NCBI RefSeq assembly: GCF_002024165.1
Contig: NZ_MWQN01000003.1
Location: forward strand, 310,001-374,000
Reading direction: 5' to 3'
Origin: Embleya scabrispora
Lineage (GTDB): Bacteria > Actinomycetota > Actinomycetes > Streptomycetales > Streptomycetaceae
Length of the DNA: 64,000 bases
Made by a program: the position numbers and the translations under genes. Shown one piece after another: positions 34,718-47,535 of the stretch. Every line of letters starts with the position of its first letter. The stretch's first letter is position 1. Under the pieces are notes generated by a model. That model saw only the letters and a program-made list of their open reading frames with translations, had not been told where the DNA came from and made no database searches.

Positions 34718-35764
34718 ATGCGGATCGGCATCATCATGGCCGCACGCCCGGGCCTGGAGTTCCTGGCGGCCCGTGCGGAGGAACTCGGTTTCAGTAGTTT
34801 CTGGGTATACGACACACCGTTGGTCCATGGTGATCCGTTCGTCGGCCTCGCGCTCTGCGCCAAGTCCACCGACCGGATCAGACTCGGCATCGGCGTCACC
34901 TCACCGGCACTGCGGTCCGCGCCCGCCGCGGCGGCGGCGCTCGGCAGTCTCAACGCCCTCGCTCCCGGCCGCATCATCTGCGGCGTCGGCACCGGCAACA
35001 CCGCGCGCCGCACGCTCGGCATGCGGCCGGCGAAGACGGTCGAACTGGCGTCGTTCACGGCAGCCTTGCAGGACCTCACCGCGGGCCGCGAGTCGGACCA
35101 TCACGAGGGAACCCGGTCGAGCAGGGTCCGCTTCCTGCACGTCGACGGTTACGTCGACATGGAGGACCCGGTGGAGTTCGTCGTGGCCGCGTTCGGCCCG
35201 AGAGTCGCCGCCGTCGCCGGCCGCCTGGGTACGGGAATGATCTCCTTCGCGTTGCACGCCCCCGAGGCCTGGTCCGCGCTCGGCCGGGCCCGCCGGGCGG
35301 CGGCACAGGCCGCGGGCAACAGCGAGAAGGCGCATTCGTACCTCGTCTCCTCCCTGTATGTCCTCGCCGACGGCGAGGACCGGTACGGCGATGCCGTCAA
35401 GGACGCGATGGGGCACATCGCGGTGACCGCACTGATCCTCGCGGTGGAGAACCCGGCCTTCCGCGCGGCCCTGTCCCGGGAGGAGGCCGCGGCTGTCGAC
35501 CGCCTGCTGCACCTGCGCGGTACCTCCGCCACCGACCCCAACCGCCACCACACGCTCTACCACAATTATCTCGGCCGACTGTCCCCCGGGGAGCGCGATC
35601 TCGTCGTGCCCTCACTGGTGGACAGGTTCGGTCTGGTCGGCACCAGGGACGAACTCGGAGAGCGGATCGACGCGCTGGAGAAGTCGGGGGTCGACGAACT
35701 CTTGATCCAACCCGTGGTGAACCCCGAGGCGGACATGGCCGAACTCGCGCGGCTCCTGCCCTGA
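34718..35764 (+). CDS. Luciferase-like flavin/F420-dependent oxidoreductase
   Basis: 348 residues, the usual size for the LLM class. RIGIIMAARPGLEFLAARAE, LGFSSFWVYDTPLVHGDPFV and LGIGVTSPALRSAPAAAAAL are the N-terminal strands of the TIM barrel. The ARLNAL-like GSLNALAPGRIICGVGTGNT is the phosphate/flavin-binding loop region. The C-terminal DRFGLVGTRDELGERIDALE is a typical end. It probably uses FMNH2 or reduced F420; the substrate is unknown. It is convergent with the four-gene operon and ends 71 bases from the last operon gene. Confidence 0.88.
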   Translation: MRIGIIMAARPGLEFLAARAEELGFSSFWVYDTPLVHGDPFVGLALCAKSTDRIRLGIGVTSPALRSAPAAAAALGSLNALAPGRIICGVGTGNTARRTLGMRPAKTVELASFTAALQDLTAGRESDHHEGTRSSRVRFLHVDGYVDMEDPVEFVVAAFGPRVAAVAGRLGTGMISFALHAPEAWSALGRARRAAAQAAGNSEKAHSYLVSSLYVLADGEDRYGDAVKDAMGHIAVTALILAVENPAFRAALSREEAAAVDRLLHLRGTSATDPNRHHTLYHNYLGRLSPGERDLVVPSLVDRFGLVGTRDELGERIDALEKSGVDELLIQPVVNPEADMAELARLLP

Positions 35765-35835: not shown

Positions 35836-37473
35836 TCAGATCCGCGAGGTGGGTTCCTCGGGCGCCTCCTTGGGTTCGGAGTCCGACAGGTCGACGTCGC
35901 CCGCGACCGTGGACGGCGTGATCGCGCCCTTGCCGAAAGGGACCCAGATGAGCCAGGCGTACCTGTAATCGGGACCGGAATCGCCCCCTTGCATGCCGAA
36001 GTAGACGCTGCACGAACCGCCCTTGCGGATCGGCAGCACCGCCACGTTGGCGGCCGTGCGGCCGTCGCTGCGCATCGCGGAGGCGGTGATGTTGGTCCCG
36101 TTCCCGGAGAGTTTGACGATCGAGTTGCGGGAGTTGCCGGTGGTGTGGACCTCGCCGATCGCCAGACCCGCGGTCGGGGCGGTGAACGTCAAAGTCCTGC
36201 CGTAGCTCAGTTGGAAGACCTGCGCCGGACCGACGATGTCCATGATGGAACCGGTCGCGGCGAACGGTCCGGTGACCGTCAGACCGTCGGCGCCCGCGAT
36301 GATCTTCGGCGCGGACAACTGCTTGCCCGCGGCCACCGTCACGTTGCCGTTCAGCAGGCTGGTGCCGGACACCGTGAGGTTGTCGGCGATCGTGACGTTG
36401 TTCCCCGGCAGCACGCTCGTGTGGCTGTTGATCTTCAGGGACAGGCCGTACGGTCCGCGCAGGTCCCTGATCCGGACGGTCGTACCGTCCTCGGTGACGG
36501 AGACATCGCCCTTGGCCGTGGTGGGGCCCGCCACCACCAACGGCCCCTTGACGGTGGTCGTCCGGTCCGCCGACGACAGGTTGAGATGGCCGCCGACGTC
36601 GATCGTCGGATACTGCCCCAACCCCATCATGGTGCGCGCGTACAAGGTCTTGGCCTGGTCCACCGTGACGTCGCCCTTGGCGGTGGTCGTGCCGTGGACC
36701 ACGAGGTTTCCCACCTCCAGGTCCGGCTTGATGACCGTCACCTGGCAGGTCAGGATCCGCACCACCTGGTCCGGCGTCTCGCCCACGGTGCCGCGCAGGT
36801 AGAACGTCGTGTCGGACTTGACGTTCGTGATCTTCCGGGTGGACTCGTTGCCGACGTTCAGACATGTGCCGCCGTAGAGCAGTTCGTACGCCGCGTTCGC
36901 CGAGCGCTCCCAGGTCAGCGTGACGTCGCCACCGTTGTTGATCACCAACGGGTCGCAGATGAGGTTCCGCATGTAGAAGCCGGGCGGGAACTTGCCCACG
37001 CTGAAGACCAGTTGTCGATTCTGGAAGGCGCTGCTCCCGGTGCGCGAGCGCTCGGTCACGGTCACCGGGGAGCTGCCGACCTTCCGGCTCACCGGAAGCT
37101 CCGAGATCTGGATGGTGATCCCCTGGTCCGGACCGATCGTCTCGTACGCCGCCGTCGGCGTGAAGACGAACTCCTTGGTGGAGGTGTTCAGTGCCACCGT
37201 CCACCCGGACAGGCTGATGGTCGCCACGGCCTTGCTCAGTTCGAGGGCGAAGTCGGGGGCGGCCGTACCGGCCGGGATCTTCACCTTGATGGACTCGACG
37301 TCGGCCGCCGTACCGCTGCGCCGCGCCGCCACGAGGATCAGCTCGCAGGTCTCCGGCGGGGTCTCCGGATTCTCCGGTGACGCCTCCACCGGGTCCGGAT
37401 TCGTCGTCAGGTCGTACGACAGCAGCGGTTCGTCCGCGGACACCACGGTGAAGCTCTGGGCGACCAGACTCAT
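35836..37473 (-). CDS. Operon protein D: repetitive beta-rich (solenoid-like) protein
   Basis: 545 residues from the ATG at 37473 (AAGGGAG upstream; 6 bases after the preceding stop). The N-terminal ~150 residues resemble an Ig-like/cargo domain (VKIPAGTAAPDFALELSKAV). Around 150-245 is a second beta domain with paired Cys (NLICDP, GGTCLNVG, LTCQVTV). From ~250 to 430 there are imperfect repeats of the type GNLVVHGTTTAKGDVTV, GPLVVAGPTTAKGDVSV, DNLTVSGTSLLNGNVTVAAG, suggesting a beta-helix or fibre stalk. The C-terminal ~110 residues (RKGGSCSVYFGMQGGDSG) form a compact cap with an acidic tail. There is no signal peptide or catalytic motif. The function is unknown. Confidence 0.8.
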   Translation of the reverse strand: MSLVAQSFTVVSADEPLLSYDLTTNPDPVEASPENPETPPETCELILVAARRSGTAADVESIKVKIPAGTAAPDFALELSKAVATISLSGWTVALNTSTKEFVFTPTAAYETIGPDQGITIQISELPVSRKVGSSPVTVTERSRTGSSAFQNRQLVFSVGKFPPGFYMRNLICDPLVINNGGDVTLTWERSANAAYELLYGGTCLNVGNESTRKITNVKSDTTFYLRGTVGETPDQVVRILTCQVTVIKPDLEVGNLVVHGTTTAKGDVTVDQAKTLYARTMMGLGQYPTIDVGGHLNLSSADRTTTVKGPLVVAGPTTAKGDVSVTEDGTTVRIRDLRGPYGLSLKINSHTSVLPGNNVTIADNLTVSGTSLLNGNVTVAAGKQLSAPKIIAGADGLTVTGPFAATGSIMDIVGPAQVFQLSYGRTLTFTAPTAGLAIGEVHTTGNSRNSIVKLSGNGTNITASAMRSDGRTAANVAVLPIRKGGSCSVYFGMQGGDSGPDYRYAWLIWVPFGKGAITPSTVAGDVDLSDSEPKEAPEEPTSRI

Positions 37474-37479
37474 CGCGTA

Positions 37480-40400
37480 TCAACTCCCTTCGGTGGAGCG
37501 GCTGTGCGCCGCCGCGTTGTCAAGGGTCAGGAACCCGGATCTGATCTCCGGTTCCACCGGCGGCAGGTCGCTCGTGTCCTGCGGCTGAATCGCGAGCTTC
37601 TCCCACGTGCCGCCGCGGTTCTCGCTCCAGGACCACTCGCCGAGCACTGTCGCGGGGACGGGCATCAGGACGGTTTCCTGCGGCTCGCGGGACGGGCCGT
37701 ACAGGTCCACGCTCCCGGCGAGGAGGTCTCCGGTGCGGAAGTTCACCGACATGCGGGCCAGCGCCGCGTCCGTGAACTCCTGCGGGACGACGACCTTCTT
37801 CGTCGCGAGGAGGTCCGTGGTGGCATGGGCCGCGCCGCGCGGGTCGACGAGCAGGGTCAGCACCGCCGTGTTCCGGTCGCCGAAGTTCAGCCACAGTTTC
37901 GGTACATCACCGATGGGGCGCAGGTAGTCGCCGCCGCCGGCCGCCGGGTCGACGATCGTGTCGAAGCGCTCGTAGTCGCCGTCGGTGACGTAGCCGACGA
38001 CGCCGTCCTCGGTCTCGTCCGCCTCGCCCATGCGCACCACCCAGGGGTAGGAGGGCAGTTCGCGTTCGGTGTCCTCGAACAACATCCTCCAGCTCACGTC
38101 GGAGGCGAGCGGGCCGTGCGTCTCCATCTCCAGCCGGGTCCGGATCAGGGCCAGTGGGCGACCCAGCAGGAAGCCGAGACCGGGGTCGGCGGGGCCGGCC
38201 GGGTCGATGGTTTGCAGGGCCTTGTCCACCGTGGCCCGGAAGGCGTCGAACACCTCGGGACCCCTGGTCTTGACGGGCTTCAGGAAGTCGTGGGCATGTA
38301 CCGAGATCCCCCGCAACTGCTCGAAGTCGGTGACCTCCGATCCGGGCAGCACGGACCACGAAACCTCCCTGACCGACTGGGCGTTGCGGGTCACCCGCAG
38401 TTCCCCGAGCGCCGAACCCGTCGCTTCGTACACGACCAGCGACCTGTCCAGCCGGTTGTGCACCAGCCACGCGCACACCGGGTTGCTCCCGGGGGCCGCC
38501 TCGACGTCCTCGTCCCCGATCGCGGACAGGAAGTCGAAGCGCAGCCGGGCCGGTTGGAGCAGCCGCGGGCCCAGTTCGATGAGCCGGTCGGCGTCCTGGT
38601 CCTGGGCGAAGTGCGCGGGTTGCATCGTGCGGACGATCTCCGGCCGGAAGTGCAGCGAGTCGCCGATCAGGTCGACGGCCCGGCCGAACCGGTCCACGAC
38701 CGACAGGTCGAGGAACGCCATCTGTCCGGCCCGAAGCTCCTGGAACCGCGAAGGGGGCCACTCCCCCCAGTCGTCGGTGGGCGCGCCGCCGGGGTCGGGC
38801 GGCGCGAAGTCCCCGTCACCCAGCAGGTCGGCGATGTCCGGAGGCGGCTGCGTGGCGCCGGAGGGCTGTCGTTGCGCGATTGCCGCGCCGAACCCGTCGA
38901 GGACCTGCGACAGTACGTCGGTCTCCTTGGCGTCGGACCGCAGTCTGCGCAGGGTTTCGGCCGGGATGAGGCCGTCGCGTCGACGGGCGTGGACGTCGAG
39001 TTCGCCTTCCATGACGTGCCCGGCGGTGGGGGCGAGCAACTGCCGGCCGGAGGCGATGACGGTGCGAATCTCCTGCGGGCGTCGTTCCTCGGGCCAACCC
39101 TTCCAGCGGTAGCGGGAGCGCTCGATGAACTCCCAGTGATCGCCGTCCTCGTCGTGGAAGGGCAGCGGGAAGTATTCCGCCTTCCACATGAGGAACAGGG
39201 GCTGCCACGGCATTTCCCACGCACTCGTACCGTAAATGGGCATCATGCCGGTGACGTTGGTGTAGTTGCCGGTCTTCAGCGCCTTGCCGAGGATGAAGAA
39301 CTCGGTGGCCAGGGCCGGGAAGCAGGGCGGAAGGTCGGTCAGCGTGAGCTTCGCGACCAGCGGGGCCACCTGACTGCCCGTCACTCCGGAGGCCGCGGTC
39401 ACCAGTCGGTCCGGCGTGCGGCACGGCAGGGACTCCTCGCGGACCAGCGGGGCGTGCAGGTTCGCTCCTTCGAGGGCGAGGACCGGGTCGGCGCTGTACT
39501 CGAAGTCCTGGCGGGGCGCGCGGATCAGGGTGCGGGCCGAACGGGCGCCGTATCGCGGGTACTTCCGTTCGATGTCGGCGGCGAGTTGGTCGACGGTCCG
39601 ACCGGTCGGCAGCAGGGCGTCGAGGGTGCTCGTTCCGGAGAGCCGTTCGACCTCCGCCTTGGCCTGTGCCAGTGCGTCGTCGATGCCTTCGTGGAAGACG
39701 GGCGGTTGGTCCTCGCGTCGGGTGAGCCACCACAGCTGGTAGAGGCGTTCCCGGGCGGCGCGCAGGTCGCGTTCGCGGGCGTCCGCCTGAGCCTGGAGTT
39801 CGTTGAGTTGCCGGAGCAGGGCGCTCTCGTCCTCGTCCCGGGGGCGGAAGGTCCGGCCGGCGGGTGCGGAGGGGTCATCGGGTTCGATCGCGCCGCGGGC
39901 ACCGATGAACCAGTGGTAGCCGCCGGGAACCGGGCCGAAGCCGATGTCGTGGGCGCGGCGGTCGGTGAGGATGTCCGCTTCGGGGAGGTCCCGCTCGGCC
40001 AGTGCCTCGGTACCGCCGAGCAGGAACGCCCGGAAGAGTTGGGCCTCTTCGGCGGAGAGCACACCTTCGGCGGACGCTCCCGTCTCGCCCACGGCCTCCA
40101 TCACGCTGTTGGCGACGGTGGGGGTGACCTCGGTGCGGTGCGGGCATTTCGACGGAGGCACCCCTCCGTCGATGTTCCAGTCGAGGCCCAGGACGGTGCC
40201 GGAGTAGACGGATGTGCGGATACCGCCGCCGGATCCGGGCGGCGCCGTCCAGCGGAGGCGGTCGAGCAGAGCCGGGAGCTCGTCCGGCGCGGCGAGGATG
40301 TCGCTGTCGGGCTGGGCGTACCAACCGGCGACGAAGTAGCCGAGCCGTTCGGTGGGTTCGACGCCGTCCAGCGTGTCGTGCATCGAGAACACGTTCTTGT

Positions 40401-40938
40401 TGTACGGCTGGAAGACGGAGAAGGTCGGCAGACCGGGACCGACCGCCGTAAGGAACGGGTCGTGCCGGTCGACGGGTTCCTTCCAGGCGCCGGTCAGGTC
40501 GTGGCACTTGCCGATGAGGGTGGCTTCGGGATGGGCGGTGTCCGGATTCTGGAAGGACACCGTGCCCTTCATGGGGTCGAGGTAGTCGCTCTCGACGATC
40601 CACGCCCTGACCTCGGCCGTGCCGTCCTCGTGCCGCACCACCAGCCAGCGGTTGGGGACGAGGGGGAAGTCGCCCACACCTTCGTCCTCGTCGTGCCTGC
40701 CGCGGGTGAGGGCGGCGGGAAGTTCCCACTGGAGGTAGACGCCGAGCTTGTCCTCTTTTCCGGGCCAGGCCTCCAGGCCCATGAAGGGGGCGGGTTCGGG
40801 CGGGCTGCCCTGGGCGACGCCCCGGAAGTTCGTGGTCCAGCGCTGGAAGACGTGATCGTCGCCGGTGTCGCGGGTCTGCCGGTTGACGGCGAGTGCCGCC
40901 ACCTCGACGGGAACGACCAGGATGCTGTCCGCGGACAT
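37480..40938 (-). CDS. Operon protein C: very large protein of unknown function
   Basis: 1,152 residues from the ATG at 40938 with a strong GAAAGGAGG; the upstream stop is 13 bases away. The N-terminus (ILVVPVEVAALAVNRQTRDT) is hydrophobic but is not a signal. Distinctive sequence includes VYLQWELPAALTRGRHDEDE, PLVPNRWLVVRHEDGTAEVR, FQPYNKNVFSMHDTL and YFVAGWYAQPDSDILA. Residues ~365-405 (LLRQLNELQAQADARERDLR) form a probable coiled coil. It is rich in Trp and Pro and mostly beta-like afterwards. There are no nucleotide-binding, protease or glycosidase motifs and no membrane helices. Its size and operon context suggest a structural component of a large assembly; this is inference. Confidence 0.8.
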   Translation of the reverse strand: MSADSILVVPVEVAALAVNRQTRDTGDDHVFQRWTTNFRGVAQGSPPEPAPFMGLEAWPGKEDKLGVYLQWELPAALTRGRHDEDEGVGDFPLVPNRWLVVRHEDGTAEVRAWIVESDYLDPMKGTVSFQNPDTAHPEATLIGKCHDLTGAWKEPVDRHDPFLTAVGPGLPTFSVFQPYNKNVFSMHDTLDGVEPTERLGYFVAGWYAQPDSDILAAPDELPALLDRLRWTAPPGSGGGIRTSVYSGTVLGLDWNIDGGVPPSKCPHRTEVTPTVANSVMEAVGETGASAEGVLSAEEAQLFRAFLLGGTEALAERDLPEADILTDRRAHDIGFGPVPGGYHWFIGARGAIEPDDPSAPAGRTFRPRDEDESALLRQLNELQAQADARERDLRAARERLYQLWWLTRREDQPPVFHEGIDDALAQAKAEVERLSGTSTLDALLPTGRTVDQLAADIERKYPRYGARSARTLIRAPRQDFEYSADPVLALEGANLHAPLVREESLPCRTPDRLVTAASGVTGSQVAPLVAKLTLTDLPPCFPALATEFFILGKALKTGNYTNVTGMMPIYGTSAWEMPWQPLFLMWKAEYFPLPFHDEDGDHWEFIERSRYRWKGWPEERRPQEIRTVIASGRQLLAPTAGHVMEGELDVHARRRDGLIPAETLRRLRSDAKETDVLSQVLDGFGAAIAQRQPSGATQPPPDIADLLGDGDFAPPDPGGAPTDDWGEWPPSRFQELRAGQMAFLDLSVVDRFGRAVDLIGDSLHFRPEIVRTMQPAHFAQDQDADRLIELGPRLLQPARLRFDFLSAIGDEDVEAAPGSNPVCAWLVHNRLDRSLVVYEATGSALGELRVTRNAQSVREVSWSVLPGSEVTDFEQLRGISVHAHDFLKPVKTRGPEVFDAFRATVDKALQTIDPAGPADPGLGFLLGRPLALIRTRLEMETHGPLASDVSWRMLFEDTERELPSYPWVVRMGEADETEDGVVGYVTDGDYERFDTIVDPAAGGGDYLRPIGDVPKLWLNFGDRNTAVLTLLVDPRGAAHATTDLLATKKVVVPQEFTDAALARMSVNFRTGDLLAGSVDLYGPSREPQETVLMPVPATVLGEWSWSENRGGTWEKLAIQPQDTSDLPPVEPEIRSGFLTLDNAAAHSRSTEGS

Positions 40939-40951
40939 GCCGGGCCTCCTT

Positions 40952-43156
40952 TCAGGGGCGGATGAAGGACTGGACCTGCGGCGCCTGGATCATCTGCAGG
41001 GCGAACCGGGCCGAGGACAGCCGGACACCGCCGTGCGCGGCCTCGAGGCCGTCCAGCAGGGCCGTGCCGGGGCCGCAGATGTTGAGCACTCCCGTGTCCC
41101 GGTCGCGGAGGTACGCGCCGAAGTCACGGTCCGCCGGGAACTCGCCCTTCCCATGGCCGATCTCGTCGCCCTCGATCTCGCGGAGTTCGATGGTGCCGAG
41201 GTTGCCGATGCCGAAGCAGATGCCGCGCGGTGGTTCGGCGATCTCGAACCGGTCGATCACCACGGGGAAGAGCACGAGTCGAACGTCCGTGCCGTAGACG
41301 GCGGTGCGCAGCGGCTCGACCTCGACTCCGTTGCGCAGCCCGGTGTGGATGGTGGTGGGCCAGCCGGGGATCAGCGACGAGCGAATGAGTACGCCGCACG
41401 CCGGGATCGGTCCGCCTTCCAGGGCGAGGCTGTTGAGGTCGGCGTCGAGGGCGTGGCCGACACCGATGCTCAGGGCCCCGTCGACGGCGGCGCGGATCCA
41501 CTGCGGGTCGACGTGGAAGAAGCGGATGCTCTCCTGGGGCAACATGCGGCTGTCCGGGACGAGGTTGTCGAAGGTCGTCGTCTCCAGCAGGCGCAGCCGG
41601 TCGAGCCGGCCGCGTACGCCGACGAACTCGTCACCGGCCGCTTCGCGGAGGACGGACCGTACGCCGGCATCGGCCAGGAGCGACCCGGCGTCCTCGGTGG
41701 TGCGCGCGGCCCGCGTCGTGGTGCGCCGGCGGCCGGCACGCAGCGCGGCGGGGGCTTCGCGCACGGCCCGGCCGAGCCGGGCGCCGCCGTCGTCCCGGAG
41801 CATGCGGTCGAAGGACTCGATCGCTAGGGGTGCGGTGAGGTGGCGGGCCGAGACGGCGCGCCCGACCGGATCCGGGTGGGCGGCGAGGCGGCGTACGGCG
41901 AACCGGGCGGCCCTGCGGAACTCCAGGAGCGCCTTCCGGTAGTCGGCGTCGGCGAGGGCGAGCGTGCGTCCCGCGGTGAACGCGGCGGCGTACGAGGTGT
42001 CGAAGACGCCGTACTTCTCCAGGTAGACGAGTGCTTCCCCGGAGGAGTCGAGGCGTACGCGGCCTTCGCCGGGGTCGGGCAGCGGCTGGGGCTTCAGCGC
42101 GGTGAAGGGCCCACGGTGGAAGGCGATCGTGCGTTCCCCGGTGGGCAGGCGCTGCGGAAGGGTGGTCGCGCCGCCGGCGATGCGGTCGAGCGCTTCGCGT
42201 TGATGTTCCGTCACGTTGCCCGGTTCGGTGACCGGGACGCGCAGGCGCAGGTCCTGACGTGGCGTCAGTCCATCGGTGGTGGCGAGGCCTTGGACCACGT
42301 CGCCGAAGCCGGTGCCGTCGTCGGGTCGGGTCTCGAAGGTCCAGGAGGTGAGGGAGACCAGCCGAACACCTTCCTCGGGAGCGCGTTCGGTGAGGGCGTG
42401 GTCGTGGCCTTCGAGGCTGACGAGGTGACAGACGTGCAGGCCGCCTCGCTGGTCGGGGAATCGGTTGGCGACGACGACGGCGTTGAGCTGGTCGATGTCG
42501 GGTTCGGGGTTGCTGCGGGCGCGGACGGCGTCGGGCTTTCCGCCCTCCCGGACGTGGGCGAGGTAGGCCATTTCGGCCGGGAGCGGCTTGACCCGGTCGA
42601 AGACAACGGCGGGGACGTGGATGCTGACGCAGGTCTCGTCGTACTCGTCGGGGCGCAGGCTGTCGGGGTCGAGTTGCGGCGGGCGGCCGGGGCCGTGTTC
42701 GCCGGTGAGCAGTCTGCGTACGGTGTCGACGGTGACGGCGCCGACCGCCTCGGGGTCTTCGTCCAGTTCGCCGGGGCGGAAGACGAACAGGGCCATCCAG
42801 GGGATGCCGTCGTCGTATTCGTCGATGTCGCCCAGCGGCCGGGACCAGGGGAGTTCGGGGATGTCGAGGTTGATGTGCGGCAGCACCTCGCTGTAGGTGC
42901 CGACCGCGTCGGGCACGGGGTATCGGGCGTTGACGGCGGTGGGGGCGATGGAGAAGCGGGGCTGGATGACGTCGAAGGGCTGGGGTTTGCCGTCGAGCGG
43001 CCGGTCGGCGCCGTCGGTGGCGCGGAGCAGTTGCCTGGTGTGGATCTCGTAGCGGCCCGCGTGGAGCGACGGGATCCGGTGGTCGAAGAAGCGGGTGCGG
43101 TGAGCGGTGGCCGGGGGCGTCTGGTCCCGGGCCCCGGTCTCGGGTGCGGTGGTCAC
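40952..43156 (-). CDS. Operon protein B: large protein of unknown function
   Basis: 734 residues from GTG 43156, chosen because AGGAGG stands 6 bases upstream and the first gene ends 22 bases before; upstream codons are Ser/Pro-rich. Notable sequence: FFDHRIPSLHAGRYEIHTRQ, PFDVIQPRFSIAPTAVNARY, SEVLPHINLDIPELPWSRPL, IPWMALFVFRPGEL, LHVCHLVSLEGHDHAL and VRLVSLTSWTFE. The middle (~420-530) is Arg/Ala-rich and helical; the last ~200 residues are beta-like (FHVDPQWIRAAVDGALSIGV, GICFGIGNLGTIELREIEG). There is no signal, membrane helix or known catalytic motif. Cytoplasmic as translated; probably a structural partner of the neighbouring proteins. Confidence 0.8.
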   Translation of the reverse strand: MTTAPETGARDQTPPATAHRTRFFDHRIPSLHAGRYEIHTRQLLRATDGADRPLDGKPQPFDVIQPRFSIAPTAVNARYPVPDAVGTYSEVLPHINLDIPELPWSRPLGDIDEYDDGIPWMALFVFRPGELDEDPEAVGAVTVDTVRRLLTGEHGPGRPPQLDPDSLRPDEYDETCVSIHVPAVVFDRVKPLPAEMAYLAHVREGGKPDAVRARSNPEPDIDQLNAVVVANRFPDQRGGLHVCHLVSLEGHDHALTERAPEEGVRLVSLTSWTFETRPDDGTGFGDVVQGLATTDGLTPRQDLRLRVPVTEPGNVTEHQREALDRIAGGATTLPQRLPTGERTIAFHRGPFTALKPQPLPDPGEGRVRLDSSGEALVYLEKYGVFDTSYAAAFTAGRTLALADADYRKALLEFRRAARFAVRRLAAHPDPVGRAVSARHLTAPLAIESFDRMLRDDGGARLGRAVREAPAALRAGRRRTTTRAARTTEDAGSLLADAGVRSVLREAAGDEFVGVRGRLDRLRLLETTTFDNLVPDSRMLPQESIRFFHVDPQWIRAAVDGALSIGVGHALDADLNSLALEGGPIPACGVLIRSSLIPGWPTTIHTGLRNGVEVEPLRTAVYGTDVRLVLFPVVIDRFEIAEPPRGICFGIGNLGTIELREIEGDEIGHGKGEFPADRDFGAYLRDRDTGVLNICGPGTALLDGLEAAHGGVRLSSARFALQMIQAPQVQSFIRP

Positions 43157-43178
43157 GGTGGTCCTCCTGACGGGCGGC

Positions 43179-45857
43179 TCAGGCCGGGATGAGCATCGGG
43201 TCGGCGGTGAAGGCCGTGCCGGCGGCGGACTTGTACGCGGCGAGGTCGGTGTCGACGGGGCCGCGGTCGAGGAGGCCGAGGGTCTCGACGGCGTCGAGGA
43301 GGGCACTGCGGCGGGCCTTGACGGGATCGCTGTTCACCCCGGTGACGATGGCCTCGACCACGCTCCGGGAGGGTCGCTGCGGCACCGGGCCGACGGGCGC
43401 GGCGGCGGGATCGAGGGGCTGGATTCCGGCTGGACTCACCTGGTCGAAGGAGATGCCCTTTTCGTCGATGAAGCCGGTGTCGGTGCCGTGGTCGACCGGT
43501 GGTGAGGCGAGGTCGATCCCGATCACCCGGTCGGGGATGAGTTCGCCGCCGGCGGCACTGTCTCCCCATCGGGCACGCGGGACCGGTCCGCGGAGGATCT
43601 TGCGCCCCCACCGCATGAGGTCGTATGCGTCGTCGCCGTTGAAGGTGATCCACACCCGCAGTTCGCTCTGCCGGTCCCTGAGCCCCATGGGGAGGATGTC
43701 GATCGGTCCGCCGCCGGCGACGTCCACGGTTCCCGTCTTGCCGAGGTAGACCTTGGTGACCGGCACCTGGGTATCGGCGGTGAACCGGAAGCCGGCGTTG
43801 TCCACGATCCACGGCTTGCGTCCGCTGCGGGTGGCGGGGGCGGGGCCTTCGCCGATGAGGCCGGGCCCGGCGGTGGAGCGGACCATGTGCTGGGGTGCGG
43901 GCAGGGTGCCCTGGAAGCCGCCCCAGTCCAGCGGCGGCGGGGTGTTGTCGCGCGGTTTGCCGAAGCCGATGGTGAAGGAGATGAACCACAGGTGGACGGT
44001 GGCCTCGCCACCGACCGGTGGGCCCCAGACGCGTACGCTGACGCCGACCTCGATGGAGATCCTGATCCGGACGAACCAGATCTTGACGGTGGCGGAGACC
44101 CCGACGCGGACGCTCATACCGACGTCGAAGTAGAAGGGTTTCCACTGGAGGAAGGCGTCGACCTTGGCGATCAGCCAGGCACGCAACATGCCGGACTGGA
44201 AGACGAGTTCGAGGGCGCCGCCGGCCATCAGGGACTTGGGGGTGAGCCCGGCGTATGCGCTGCCGGAGATGGTGACGGTGGAGCCCAGGGCCCAGGTGAG
44301 CGCGGCTTCGGCTCCCTTGGGATAGCGTGCGGGGACCTCGCGCCCGGCGGGGATGCGTCCGAGGATGAACGCGAAGTCTCCGGCGTTGGGGTTGGCGCCG
44401 AACCACACCTTGAGGCCGACGCCGCCGCGCACCTTGCAGTCCGGGTCGATGACGAAGGTGTTCTCGGTGAGGCCGACGCCGAGGCTGAGTTCACCGGAGG
44501 CGGGGCGGATGGTGGCCTCGATGCCGATCTCCACGCGGGCGATCTTCTTCGCGCTCTTGGTGGGCAGTTCGGCGCCGCCCGCGCCCAGGAGGCTGATGGC
44601 CAGGTCGTCGCCGAATTGCCCGATGGCCATGGCGCGGCCCTTGATCAGTTCGAAGATGCCGAAGGCGAAGCCGGCGGCGATCCAGACGTTGCCTTCGGAG
44701 GGTTGCACCCAGGCGAGGCTCCCGCCGCCGACGAGGGTGGCGAGGACGTCGAGGGGATCGGTGGCCTCCTCGTCGTGGCCGATCGAGCCGGGGTCGTCGA
44801 GGGCCTTGAGGAACGGGAAGCTCGCGAGCGCCTCGGCGGCGGGCACGCGGACCTTGCTGTTCCAGCCGAACCCGGCCGAGACACCGTTGAGTTCGAAGGG
44901 CGGGGCGCCGATGAGCGGATCACCGGTGAGGGCGGCGTACACGAACATCGACGGATCGGTGCCGCCGTCGGGGACGACGTAGGCGCCCATCGCGGTGCCG
45001 GTGAACGGCCCGGCGCCGACGATGAGCAGGCCGGCGATGGTGGTCTTGTACGGCGGGGTGGCGGGCAGCGCGGTGAGCGCGCCGACGAGGCGGAACGTAC
45101 GGCGTTCGAGGTTGATGCTGATGCCGTTGGCGCCGGGCGGCGGCTCGGGCGGGGACCAGCCGCGGACCATCGGCGAGTCGAGCGTCGTGACGCCCTTGCG
45201 GCGGACGGCCGCGGCGCGGGGGACGACGATGCCGTGTGAGGTGACCAATGCCCTCGGCTTGCGCCGTCGTTCGTCGGGGGTGCGGTGGCGCCGGGGCGGC
45301 AGGGGTCGGCCGAGGGCATCGCGGCGCGCGGGGTCGGTTGTGGTGTCGGGTGCGGTGTCGGACGGGGATTCGGTTGCTCGCCGGGGAGGTGTGGCCAGCG
45401 GCAGGACCTGATCGCCCGTCACCAGCCAGGCACCGGGCGGGAGTCCGTCACTGTTCGGCGTTCCGTCGACCAGCACCAGGCCGCCGGCACCACCGGCGCC
45501 ACCGAGGTCCACGAGCACCCGTACACCGGATACCTGTTCGCCCTCATGGCCGAAGTCGACTCGTACCGGCAGGAGTTCGGCGGCGGCGGTGGTGACCGCG
45601 CGCCCGGCCGCGTGCAACCCCTTGGCGTCGCACACGACGTTTTCGATGCGCAGCACGCCGTCGGGAAAAACGAGAGGCGCATCCGGACCGAGGAGTTCCG
45701 GCGCGACATCGAGAACTCCCCCGGGCCGAATATCGTCGAGCAACTTCCGCAAGGCCTGGACCTGTATCACCACAGCCGTCACCCACCCTGAAATCACGAC
45801 GAAGGGTTCGGCACCCGAGGGCGGTGCGAGATCGCGACGATCACCTTCCGATGCCAT
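43179..45857 (-). CDS. Operon protein A: DUF6603-like large beta-rich protein
   Basis: 892 residues, first gene of the operon. An N-terminal part (~1-110, AVVIQVQALRKLLDDIRPGG) is followed by a Pro/Arg/Thr-rich linker (~150-200). The long central part (~230-650) is strand-rich with alternating hydrophobics (GGVGLKVWFGANPNAGDFAF, YFDVGMSVRVGVSATVKIWF, VRIRISIEVGVSVRVWGPPV, GGEATVHLWFISFTIGFGKP), a pattern I associate with DUF6603, assigned by eye. A C-terminal region follows. There is no signal peptide; the alternating pattern suggests a long amphipathic beta-sheet structure. The ribosome site before ATG 45857 is weak. Confidence 0.75.
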   Translation of the reverse strand: MASEGDRRDLAPPSGAEPFVVISGWVTAVVIQVQALRKLLDDIRPGGVLDVAPELLGPDAPLVFPDGVLRIENVVCDAKGLHAAGRAVTTAAAELLPVRVDFGHEGEQVSGVRVLVDLGGAGGAGGLVLVDGTPNSDGLPPGAWLVTGDQVLPLATPPRRATESPSDTAPDTTTDPARRDALGRPLPPRRHRTPDERRRKPRALVTSHGIVVPRAAAVRRKGVTTLDSPMVRGWSPPEPPPGANGISINLERRTFRLVGALTALPATPPYKTTIAGLLIVGAGPFTGTAMGAYVVPDGGTDPSMFVYAALTGDPLIGAPPFELNGVSAGFGWNSKVRVPAAEALASFPFLKALDDPGSIGHDEEATDPLDVLATLVGGGSLAWVQPSEGNVWIAAGFAFGIFELIKGRAMAIGQFGDDLAISLLGAGGAELPTKSAKKIARVEIGIEATIRPASGELSLGVGLTENTFVIDPDCKVRGGVGLKVWFGANPNAGDFAFILGRIPAGREVPARYPKGAEAALTWALGSTVTISGSAYAGLTPKSLMAGGALELVFQSGMLRAWLIAKVDAFLQWKPFYFDVGMSVRVGVSATVKIWFVRIRISIEVGVSVRVWGPPVGGEATVHLWFISFTIGFGKPRDNTPPPLDWGGFQGTLPAPQHMVRSTAGPGLIGEGPAPATRSGRKPWIVDNAGFRFTADTQVPVTKVYLGKTGTVDVAGGGPIDILPMGLRDRQSELRVWITFNGDDAYDLMRWGRKILRGPVPRARWGDSAAGGELIPDRVIGIDLASPPVDHGTDTGFIDEKGISFDQVSPAGIQPLDPAAAPVGPVPQRPSRSVVEAIVTGVNSDPVKARRSALLDAVETLGLLDRGPVDTDLAAYKSAAGTAFTADPMLIPA

Positions 45858-46124: not shown

Positions 46125-46248
46125 GTCGACGCCGTCTCCCCGACCATCGAACGTGGCCAGGTCATCGCCCTCGTCGGCGAGAACGGCTCCGGCAAGTCCA
46201 CTCCGGCGAAGATCGTCGCCGGGCTGTACCGGCACCCGAATGACCCAC
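46125..46248 (+). pseudogene. Fragment of an ABC-transporter ATPase (Walker A region)
   Basis: In one plus-strand frame the DNA reads [20 protein letters not shown] followed by [20 protein letters not shown]: a textbook ABC ATPase P-loop region (GENGSGKST) with its flanking strands. The sequence before and after is unrelated, with no start, signature motif or Walker B. It is a ~40-codon remnant of an ABC exporter, now overlapped in antisense by the 3' end of the MFS reading frame. Confidence 0.7.
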
Positions 46249-47535
46249 ACCCCCACAACGGCCACACCCGCTGCGTTCCGGTGCGTCGCCGCCGCCGGGC
46301 GTGGATCGGGCACACGGGCGCGGATGCGCGTCGGTGGGTGGGGTCAGGGTGGTGCGGCCGGTTAGTGCCATGATGTGGCCCGTGCCCGCGCAGAGTGCGG
46401 TGACGACGAATGTCCGCCGGACGCCGATGTGTTGCACCAGAGGGCCGGCCAGTGCCGAGCCCGACGCGACTCCCGCGGCGCCGGCGCTGACGAGCCAGGT
46501 GTACGCCTCGGTCGGGGAATCGCGCGGTGCGAGGTGGTCGAGCATGAGATACGCCGAGATCATCCGGGGCGCGTACGCGGCGCCGACGAACAACAGAAGT
46601 ATGCCGAGGTGCAGGGCGGTTCGCGCCAACGCGAGAGGCACCACGCTCGTGGCAAAGGCGCCCGAGAGCCACACGTAGCGGCGGTCGACGCCGGAGACCC
46701 ACGTGCGCGCGCCGTACCACAGCCCGCCGACCATACTGCCACCGGCCATGACGGCCAGGAGCAGTCCGGCAGTTGCGCTCCCGGTGCCGGCCGCGAACGC
46801 GGGAACCTCGATGTACAACATCCCGATCACCATCCCGGCGGCGGCGAGGGTCAGCACCAACGTGCGCATCCCCGGCACGCTCAACGCGCCGAGGGCTCCG
46901 GGGGCGTGAGCGGCACACGTCCCGACCGAGCGCGACGGTCCGGCGAGGACGAAGACGGTGGTGCCGATCAACGCCGCGATCTCGGCGAGGACCAGAACGG
47001 CCACCGGCGAAGCGAACGTGAGCACCAGTGACGCGATCAGTGGGCCGGATACGGAGATGAGGTCTTCGAGCAGCGCCTGGACCGCGTAGGCGCCGGGCAG
47101 GTCCTCGTCCGAACGCACCAGCACCGGCCACAGGCGGCGCATCGAACCGCCGAGCGTCGAACTCGCGGCGCCCACAAGGGTGATCGGCGGGAGCAGGGCC
47201 CATGCGCCCTGTTCGGTCGACACCGCGACGAGAAAGCCTGCCATCGCCGCGGTCTGCACGAGGACGAAGGGGATCAGGGTGCGGGACTGTCCCCACCGGT
47301 CCACCACACGTCCCCGGAACGGGGCACTACAGGTGGTTCCCAGCATGAGCGCGGCCAACGCCGCGCCGGACACCGAGTACGAGCCCGACGAGCGGTGCAA
47401 CACGAACACGACGCCCAGCGGAAACATGCCGTTGGGCAGGCGGCCGATGAACATCGGCACCACCAGACGGGGCACCTGGGGTGTTCGAAGAACACGCAGA
47501 TAGACGCGGAAGGGATTCCAGCCGGCAGACGGCAC
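46162..47535 (-). CDS. MFS transporter with an abnormal C-terminal extension
   Basis: 457 residues from GTG 47535 (GAGGAGAC upstream). The first ~390 residues are a normal 12-helix MFS protein ([77 protein letters not shown]). After about [12 protein letters not shown], the sequence becomes Arg/Gly/Cys-rich and runs antisense over the ABC-transporter remnant before the stop at 46162. The natural 3' end seems to have been lost by rearrangement, so the tail is probably read-through. Likely a drug or metabolite exporter; possibly still functional. Confidence 0.75.

What the first reader, a model, noticed from the sequence alone, without database searches (positions are those of the whole stretch)
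35836..45857. Four-gene operon of giant proteins without recognised enzymatic motifs: candidate undescribed system
Four minus-strand genes (892, 734, 1,152 and 545 codons) are separated by only 22, 13 and 6 bases, each later one with a strong ribosome site, and together code for ~3,320 residues. No nucleotide-binding, protease, glycosidase, membrane-helix or signal-peptide motif is visible. Protein A has a long alternating beta pattern that I associate with DUF6603. Protein C has a coiled coil and repeated aromatic/proline motifs. Protein D has solenoid-like repeats ending in a cap. Conserved order and size suggest subunits of one large assembly, possibly a filament, surface layer or delivery particle. 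This is inference.
Basis: partly seen in the sequence, partly recalled or inferred. Interest (0 to 1): 0.82.

Follow-up and report, generated by a model that had tools for sequence, protein, structure and literature searches.

The report
Conserved four-gene cassette with binding fibre
Four neighbouring genes in a soil actinomycete form a set that bacteria hand on in the same order; one encodes a variable fibre-like binding protein and one a protein that may form a membrane barrel, so the set could build an undescribed binding or delivery machine, but its function has not been tested.

Summary
A (892 aa), B (734), C (1152) and D (545) lie on the minus strand at 35836-45857 with gaps of 22, 13 and 6 bases. 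A is DUF6603; B, C and D match no curated family. The order is not strain-specific: 62 of 69 loci with a strong A or C carry A-B-C-D in order on one strand (61 Streptomycetaceae rows, one Nocardia). A Paenibacillus plasmid has A-B-C without a recognisable D. Distances of A, B and C correlate (r 0.90-0.94). The cassette is patchy (C in 52 of 394 Streptomycetaceae genomes) and sometimes decayed. D has two confidently modelled Ig-like domains and a variable, low-confidence end. A's core resembles outer-membrane barrels, but only in a poor model. Elsewhere, hemopexin/propeller proteins and assorted hydrolases sit beside the cassette; one locus has a zincin-plus-ADP-ribosyltransferase-like gene between C and D. 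The window's copy has no such partner. Best reading (0.38): an undescribed, non-contractile assembly in which D binds a target, A meets its membrane, and B and C are scaffold. Shown: the cassette and D's architecture. Inferred: everything about function. An adhesive coat and a defence role remain open.

The parts
43179..45857 (-). Gene A, 892 aa, DUF6603 protein; amphipathic beta region 251-640
   Evidence: Pfam PF20248 E 1.5e-105; low-confidence barrel-like model; alternation z 3.8
40952..43156 (-). Gene B, 734 aa, no known family; remote relative of the second gene in divergent DUF6603 loci
   Evidence: hhalign 95.3%, E 2.4e-8 over B-profile 67-296
37480..40938 (-). Gene C, 1152 aa, no known family, long conserved scaffold-like protein
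35836..37473 (-). Gene D, 545 aa: two Ig-like domains (about 14-250), then shaft-like repeats and a C-terminal tip
43163..43168 (-). AGGAGG ribosome site of B, spacing 6
   Evidence: read
40945..40950 (-). AGGAGG ribosome site of C, spacing 6
   Evidence: read
37484..37489 (-). AGGGAG ribosome site of D, inside the end of C, spacing 10
   Evidence: read

Best explanation
A-B-C-D is a mobile, co-inherited cassette for one multi-subunit assembly made in the cytoplasm (no signal peptide seen by eye) and, I infer, set free by lysis or an unknown route. D is the target-binding arm: its two Ig-like domains join it to the assembly and its exchangeable shaft or lectin-like end binds a surface. A supplies an amphipathic beta barrel or groove that meets the target membrane. 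B and C are the conserved scaffold between A and D. In other loci an enzyme or binding protein encoded beside or inside the cassette may be a payload or an extra arm; the window's copy has none next to it, so it would act through binding and membrane contact alone or with a partner encoded elsewhere. Shown: gene order, co-inheritance, purifying selection, patchy spread and decay, Ig-like domains of D. Inferred: assembly, release, A's membrane role, payload.
For: Order A-B-C-D in 62 of 69 strong loci; correlated distances over 30 loci; dN/dS 0.28-0.37. D: Ig-like domains, C-terminal half aligning over only 39% of positions against 86% for the N-terminal half, tips with F5/8 type C, PLAT or shaft repeats in a few of 35 members, up to five tandem copies (L070). 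A: barrel-like core in the model and alternating strands. Neighbours elsewhere: hemopexin/propeller proteins in or beside the block; L075 zincin plus ADP-ribosyltransferase-like gene between C and D; different hydrolases upstream of A in divergent loci.
Against: No assembly, export or toxicity was shown. A's model is poor (mean pLDDT 42.5) and its matches have rmsd near 8 A and no Foldseek E below 0.001. The window's cassette has no adjacent payload gene, and of 18 loci that I chose by eye as window-like, 16 have no same-strand gene within 150 bases upstream of A. The zincin/ART-like gene is a single case; its Peptidase_M91 score is just under Pfam's cut-off, NCBIfam finds nothing in it, and its L069 relative is on the strand opposite to that cassette. 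Some neighbours are transposases, a kinase, an oxidoreductase or an epimerase. No lysis or export gene was found, and none was searched for systematically.
Confidence: 0.38

Rival explanations
1. Adhesive extracellular scaffold: A-D build a surface-bound or shed coat (biofilm, hyphal or spore surface); neighbouring enzymes act on polymers that it binds; there is no membrane attack.
For: The Ig-like part of D resembles RbmA, a biofilm scaffold (E 9.1e-6), pilins and the grappling-hook protein; lectin-like modules; hemopexin/propeller partners.
Against: No signal peptide or cell-wall anchor seen in A-D; does not explain the barrel-like core of A; patchy spread and decay fit an optional weapon or tool at least as well.
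Confidence: 0.22
2. Intracellular conflict or anti-phage system: A-B-C sense or build a complex, D recognises the invader, and the exchanged neighbour (MBL-fold, PLD, protease) is the effector.
For: 10 of the 40 close upstream neighbours form one MBL-fold family; its member L135 hits the LmuA model (E 2.8e-12) and RTasMBL, and the L058 PLD protein hits DrmC (6.2e-8) in PADLOC; no signal peptides seen; patchy distribution.
Against: A-D match nothing in PADLOC; no Pfam nucleotide-binding or STAND domain in A-D; NCBIfam scores of the MBL protein lie far below curated cut-offs; the extracellular-type modules of D (F5/8C, PLAT, shaft repeats) are odd for a cytoplasmic sensor; the window's copy has no effector beside it.
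Confidence: 0.18
3. Lipid-handling device: A is a long hydrophobic groove that carries lipids, with B-D as its scaffold and docking parts.
For: Long alternating strands in A 251-640 in a bacterium without an outer membrane (established knowledge); likeness to groove proteins is recalled, not tested.
Against: No groove protein among the 50 rows shown (inconclusive); does not explain D's variable ends.
Confidence: 0.08

Closest known systems
Pfam DUF6603 (PF20248)
   Same: Protein A is a clear member.
   Different: A domain of unknown function; the family says nothing of the B-C-D partners. No held paper contains the name or accession.
Extracellular contractile injection systems
   Same: Fibre-like target-binding protein and, in other loci, toxin-like enzymes in or beside the operon; comparison from passages of PMC8213781.
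   Different: Those have sheath, tube, spike, baseplate and an ATPase (same passages); no such domain is found in A-D.
Tc toxin complexes
   Same: Works-like resemblance only: giant cytoplasmic proteins, a membrane-active part and payload enzymes (recalled).
   Different: No Tc, Rhs or SpvB domain in A-D.
RbmA, pilins and grappling-hook protein GhpA (Ig-like adhesion proteins)
   Same: Tandem Ig-like fold of D 14-250.
   Different: Fold likeness only; 22% identity at best among the rows cited, with no signal peptide or anchor seen in D.
Lamassu (LmuA) and similar MBL effectors
   Same: The MBL protein upstream of A in L135 hits LmuA at E 2.8e-12.
   Different: That gene is absent beside the window's cassette, and A-D hit no PADLOC model.

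Membership tests
DUF6603 (protein A) | Match to PF20248 over the curated cut-off | tested here: met
   354 bits against a cut-off of 27, residues 241-695
Extracellular contractile injection system | Sheath, tube, spike, baseplate or AAA ATPase domain in the cassette | tested here: not met
   None of these Pfam domains in A-D at E up to 5; the rest of the genome was not scanned
Tc toxin complex | TcA-, TcB- or Rhs-type domains | tested here: not met
   None in A-D in Pfam or NCBIfam
Phage tail or prophage module | Homologues in phages | tested here: not met
   A: no match in 50,697 phage records; A, B, C: none confirmed in viral contigs. D was not searched there
Known anti-phage defence system | Match to a PADLOC model in the core genes | tested here: not met
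   None for A-D; phage resistance itself not testable here
Outer-membrane beta-barrel (protein A) | Closed transmembrane barrel | tested here: inconclusive
   Z up to 15.9, rmsd 7.9 A over 274 residues, from a model with mean pLDDT 42.5; no Foldseek E below 0.001
Ig-like adhesin (protein D) | Tandem Ig-like domains | tested here: met
   pLDDT 79-94 over 41-230; Z 11.0, 2.9 A, 135 residues (7-164) and Z 9.8, 2.4 A, 76 residues (167-249)
Ig-like adhesin (protein D) | Export and binding to a surface | not testable with these tools
   Needs experiment

The most novel reading that the evidence does not exclude
A new class of bacterial delivery machine without contractile sheath or ATPase: three conserved giant proteins plus exchangeable Ig-based binding fibres, with a slot for different enzymes beside it, in which the DUF6603 protein forms a beta-barrel pore in the target's membrane.
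Probability: 0.2. Interest if true: 0.88.

Novelty: categorically new. Interest (0 to 1): 0.62.

Why it matters
About 3,300 residues of conserved, co-inherited protein without assigned function occur in roughly one in eight Streptomycetaceae genomes sampled (C in 52 of 394, own genome included) and, as A-B-C, on a Paenibacillus plasmid. If it is a binding or delivery machine, it is a new kind of tool in the best-known antibiotic producers and would give DUF6603 a function. The cassette is compact, so one deletion and one purification would test it.

Tried and rejected
Phage or prophage origin: no match of A in phage records and none confirmed for A, B or C in viral contigs; the wide A alignment could not be used for a scan; D was not searched there. 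Strain-specific oddity: rejected. Spurious ORFs in GC-rich DNA: rejected by selection and conservation; long ORFs on the opposite strand over the same stretch were taken as GC artefacts and not tested. HSP90-like stretch in D (E 0.013): not borne out by the D profile. Lamin-tail hit in D: below cut-off. PllA hit of the A profile (E 0.73) and Roundabout Ig hits of the D profile (E 0.11): not significant. Botulinum-like light-chain hits of the L075 protein (E 0.22): not significant. Profile comparison finds A, B, C and D unrelated to one another. A DNase I-like nuclease read by eye upstream of A in L073 was not confirmed by Pfam or NCBIfam. No sigma-70-type promoter found, which says little in this group. 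Lipid-groove proteins did not appear among the rows shown for A; that absence excludes nothing. A first MAFFT run timed out and was redone with faster settings. Paper searches gave nothing on the cassette (listings only; passages of one paper).

Full report
What is there. The nearest same-strand gene upstream of A is at 46162-47535, 301 bases from the A open frame; by eye it is an MFS-like transporter. Downstream is a convergent luciferase-like gene at 34718-35764 (by eye). Against E. hyalina dN/dS is 0.37, 0.32, 0.28 and 0.29 for A-D.

Families. A is DUF6603, E 1.5e-105; B and C have no match in Pfam or NCBIfam and D only a sub-threshold lamin-tail hit. PHROGs gave two weak hits, one each for C and D. 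PDB profile searches of B, A, D and C gave nothing significant. PADLOC gave nothing for A-D. No held paper contains DUF6603 or PF20248 together with Pfam; broader searches brought nothing on the cassette. 'Not in print' rests on these searches of an open-access library only.

Conservation. Six-frame profile searches of the fetched loci were counted. Of 69 loci with a strong A (over 500 bits) or strong C (over 600 bits), 62 have A-B-C in order on one strand with D after it; L008 and L100 are the same locus, so 61 are distinct. Two have A-B-C without recognised D (L013, Paenibacillus polymyxa plasmid; L126). Three have C without A: L094 is a 4.5-kb contig, L125 begins at a contig edge, L088 is a decayed P. 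sonchi plasmid copy. Two have A without C (L065, L053). Left out before the count: duplicates L049 and L072; short loci L001-L003, L015-L044, L082-L087, L089 and L090; and loci with only a weak A. Loci were found with an A or a C bait, so the evidence is in the neighbours. Pairwise distances of A, B and C over 30 loci correlate at 0.90 (A-B), 0.92 (A-C) and 0.94 (B-C); none of 2000 permutations reached them. Shared species history contributes to this.

Distribution. DUF6603 is in 32 of 150 and C in 52 of 394 Streptomycetaceae genomes, own genome included. In draws from the whole phylum DUF6603 is in 12 of 396 and C in 4 of 396, again with the own genome. Of 72,556 plasmid records A is in 7, C in 8 and B in 8, from Streptomyces, Embleya and Paenibacillus; three of them are S. 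clavuligerus. Nocardia rhizosphaerihabitans has all four (L007). Viral searches with A, B and C found none. The window's genome has a second cassette (L045) and an A N-terminal remnant (L003/L061). Several copies look broken or incomplete (L053, L059, L068, L088). I read this as a transferred, dispensable trait.

D. The model has pLDDT 79-94 over 41-230, 67-77 on either side up to 11 and 250, and low values beyond. The first two domains are Ig-like: Foldseek's best is RbmA (E 9.1e-6); VIA-align gives 3lso Z 11.0, 2.9 A over 135 residues (7-164) and GhpA (9fly) Z 9.8, 2.4 A over 76 residues at 22% identity (167-249). Viral matches mix phage tail or structural proteins with giant-virus and other proteins, all with large rmsd. 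In 35 aligned D proteins the stretch 14-250 aligns over 86% of positions at 27% identity, 255-520 over 39% at 20%. Pfam hits at E up to 0.05 among the 35 include F5/8 type C in 2, haemagglutinin repeat in 2, PLAT in 1, adenovirus shaft in 1 and phage-spike trimer in 1; cut-offs are not given in that table and some of these are weak. Of 63 loci with strong A and C (L100 left out), 33 have one D over 100 bits, 16 two, 5 three, 2 four, 1 five and 6 none. D is thus the diversified part; that it binds a target is inference.

A. With seven sequences the model is poor (mean pLDDT 42.5, pTM 0.38), but 401-590 reaches 54-85 in ten-residue means and forms an antiparallel meander. The 50 Foldseek rows shown are, by title, barrel proteins of outer membranes, the best at E 1.9e-3; VIA-align gives Z up to 15.9 with rmsd 7.9 A over 274 residues within 255-632. 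Large rmsd and low confidence make this a hint only. Hydrophobic/polar alternation exceeds shuffles in 251-640 (z 3.8), a region chosen after seeing the model, and not over the whole protein (z 0.8). A resident porin is unlikely in a Gram-positive without an outer membrane, so I infer a barrel or groove used elsewhere.

Neighbours in other loci. Hemopexin was called by Pfam in proteins of L064, L080 (two), L108 and L115; L063, L069 and L073 belong to the same similarity cluster, L073 showing only weak propeller hits. In L075 a 765-aa gene overlaps the end of C and ends just before D: residues 71-210 match Peptidase_M91 (E 2.9e-5, 24.9 bits against a cut-off of 25), and 453-724 match at 28% identity (E 1.7e-18) a 355-aa protein of L069 that hits the pertussis-S1 ADP-ribosyltransferase family over its cut-off (E 1.5e-7). 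That L069 gene lies on the strand opposite to its cassette, and NCBIfam finds nothing in either protein. Of 81 A genes listed, 40 have a same-strand gene ending within 150 bases upstream of, or overlapping, the A open frame; some overlaps are gene-caller artefacts (L112). Ten of the 40 form one MBL-fold cluster; of four members given to Pfam, two pass a Lactamase cut-off and two fall just short. Among divergent DUF6603 loci the upstream gene is a GH59 with ricin lectin (L051, 126 bases away), a PLD with a peptidoglycan-binding domain (L058), an M64 peptidase (L071, homologue in L074), a trypsin-like protein (L077), a WD40 protein (L052) or unassigned (L056); in L057 an alpha/beta hydrolase lies one gene further up. 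Others are transposase-related (L050, L081, L054) or ordinary enzymes and a kinase downstream. Of 18 loci that I chose by eye as window-like, 16 have no upstream partner within 150 bases.

A divergent class. Twelve loci have a weaker A (209-477 bits) and no strong B, C or D (L076 is a 6.6-kb contig). Their second gene is a remote relative of B (95.3%, E 2.4e-8); the third and fourth share a C-terminal domain with each other (99.5%) but show no relation to C or D. So A plus B looks like the deeper core, with the rest exchanged.

Mechanism and odds. I commit to a released multi-subunit binding assembly with a membrane-active A at 0.38; an adhesive coat 0.22, a defence role 0.18, a lipid carrier 0.08. 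The MBL cluster's likeness to LmuA (E 2.8e-12 for L135) is the best evidence for defence, and it concerns a gene that the window's cassette lacks. What is shown is a conserved, patchily spread, co-inherited cassette of unassigned function; what it does is open.

Noticed in passing
L045 (G000:C1:6801500-6821400): The window's own genome has a second A-B-C-D cassette with three D hits, one D ending in a propeller- or lectin-like part by eye.
   Followed up: partly
L003 / L061 (G000:C7:23490-23804): A lone N-terminal remnant of A (48% identical to residues 63-184) on a third contig.
   Followed up: no
L070 1-5874: Five tandem D genes follow C (the last cut by the locus edge), alike at the N-terminus and different at the C-terminus.
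   Followed up: partly
L075 12825-15122: A 765-aa protein between C and D with a zincin-like part (M91, just under cut-off) and an ADP-ribosyltransferase-like part.
   Followed up: partly
L135 4842-6131 and nine other loci: An MBL-fold family sits directly upstream of A; the L135 member hits the Lamassu LmuA model at E 2.8e-12.
   Followed up: partly
L047, L051, L052, L055-L058, L071, L074, L076, L077, L079: A divergent DUF6603 class in which, where fully visible, a remote B relative and two other large proteins replace B, C and D, often beside a hydrolase gene.
   Followed up: partly
L013 151-5146 (Paenibacillus polymyxa p-YT9A): Genes annotated as phage baseplate protein V and DUF4280 lie about 9-14 kb upstream of A on the plasmid; a PLD-like gene follows the cassette, as near the decayed P. 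sonchi copy (L088).
   Followed up: no
L010 4692-9748 (Streptomyces sp. NBC_01276 plasmid): CATRA and CHAT conflict-system genes lie about 5-10 kb upstream of A.
   Followed up: no
L114 11657-12775: A glycine-rich protein that looks like a fibre tip (by eye) follows D by about 20 bases.
   Followed up: no
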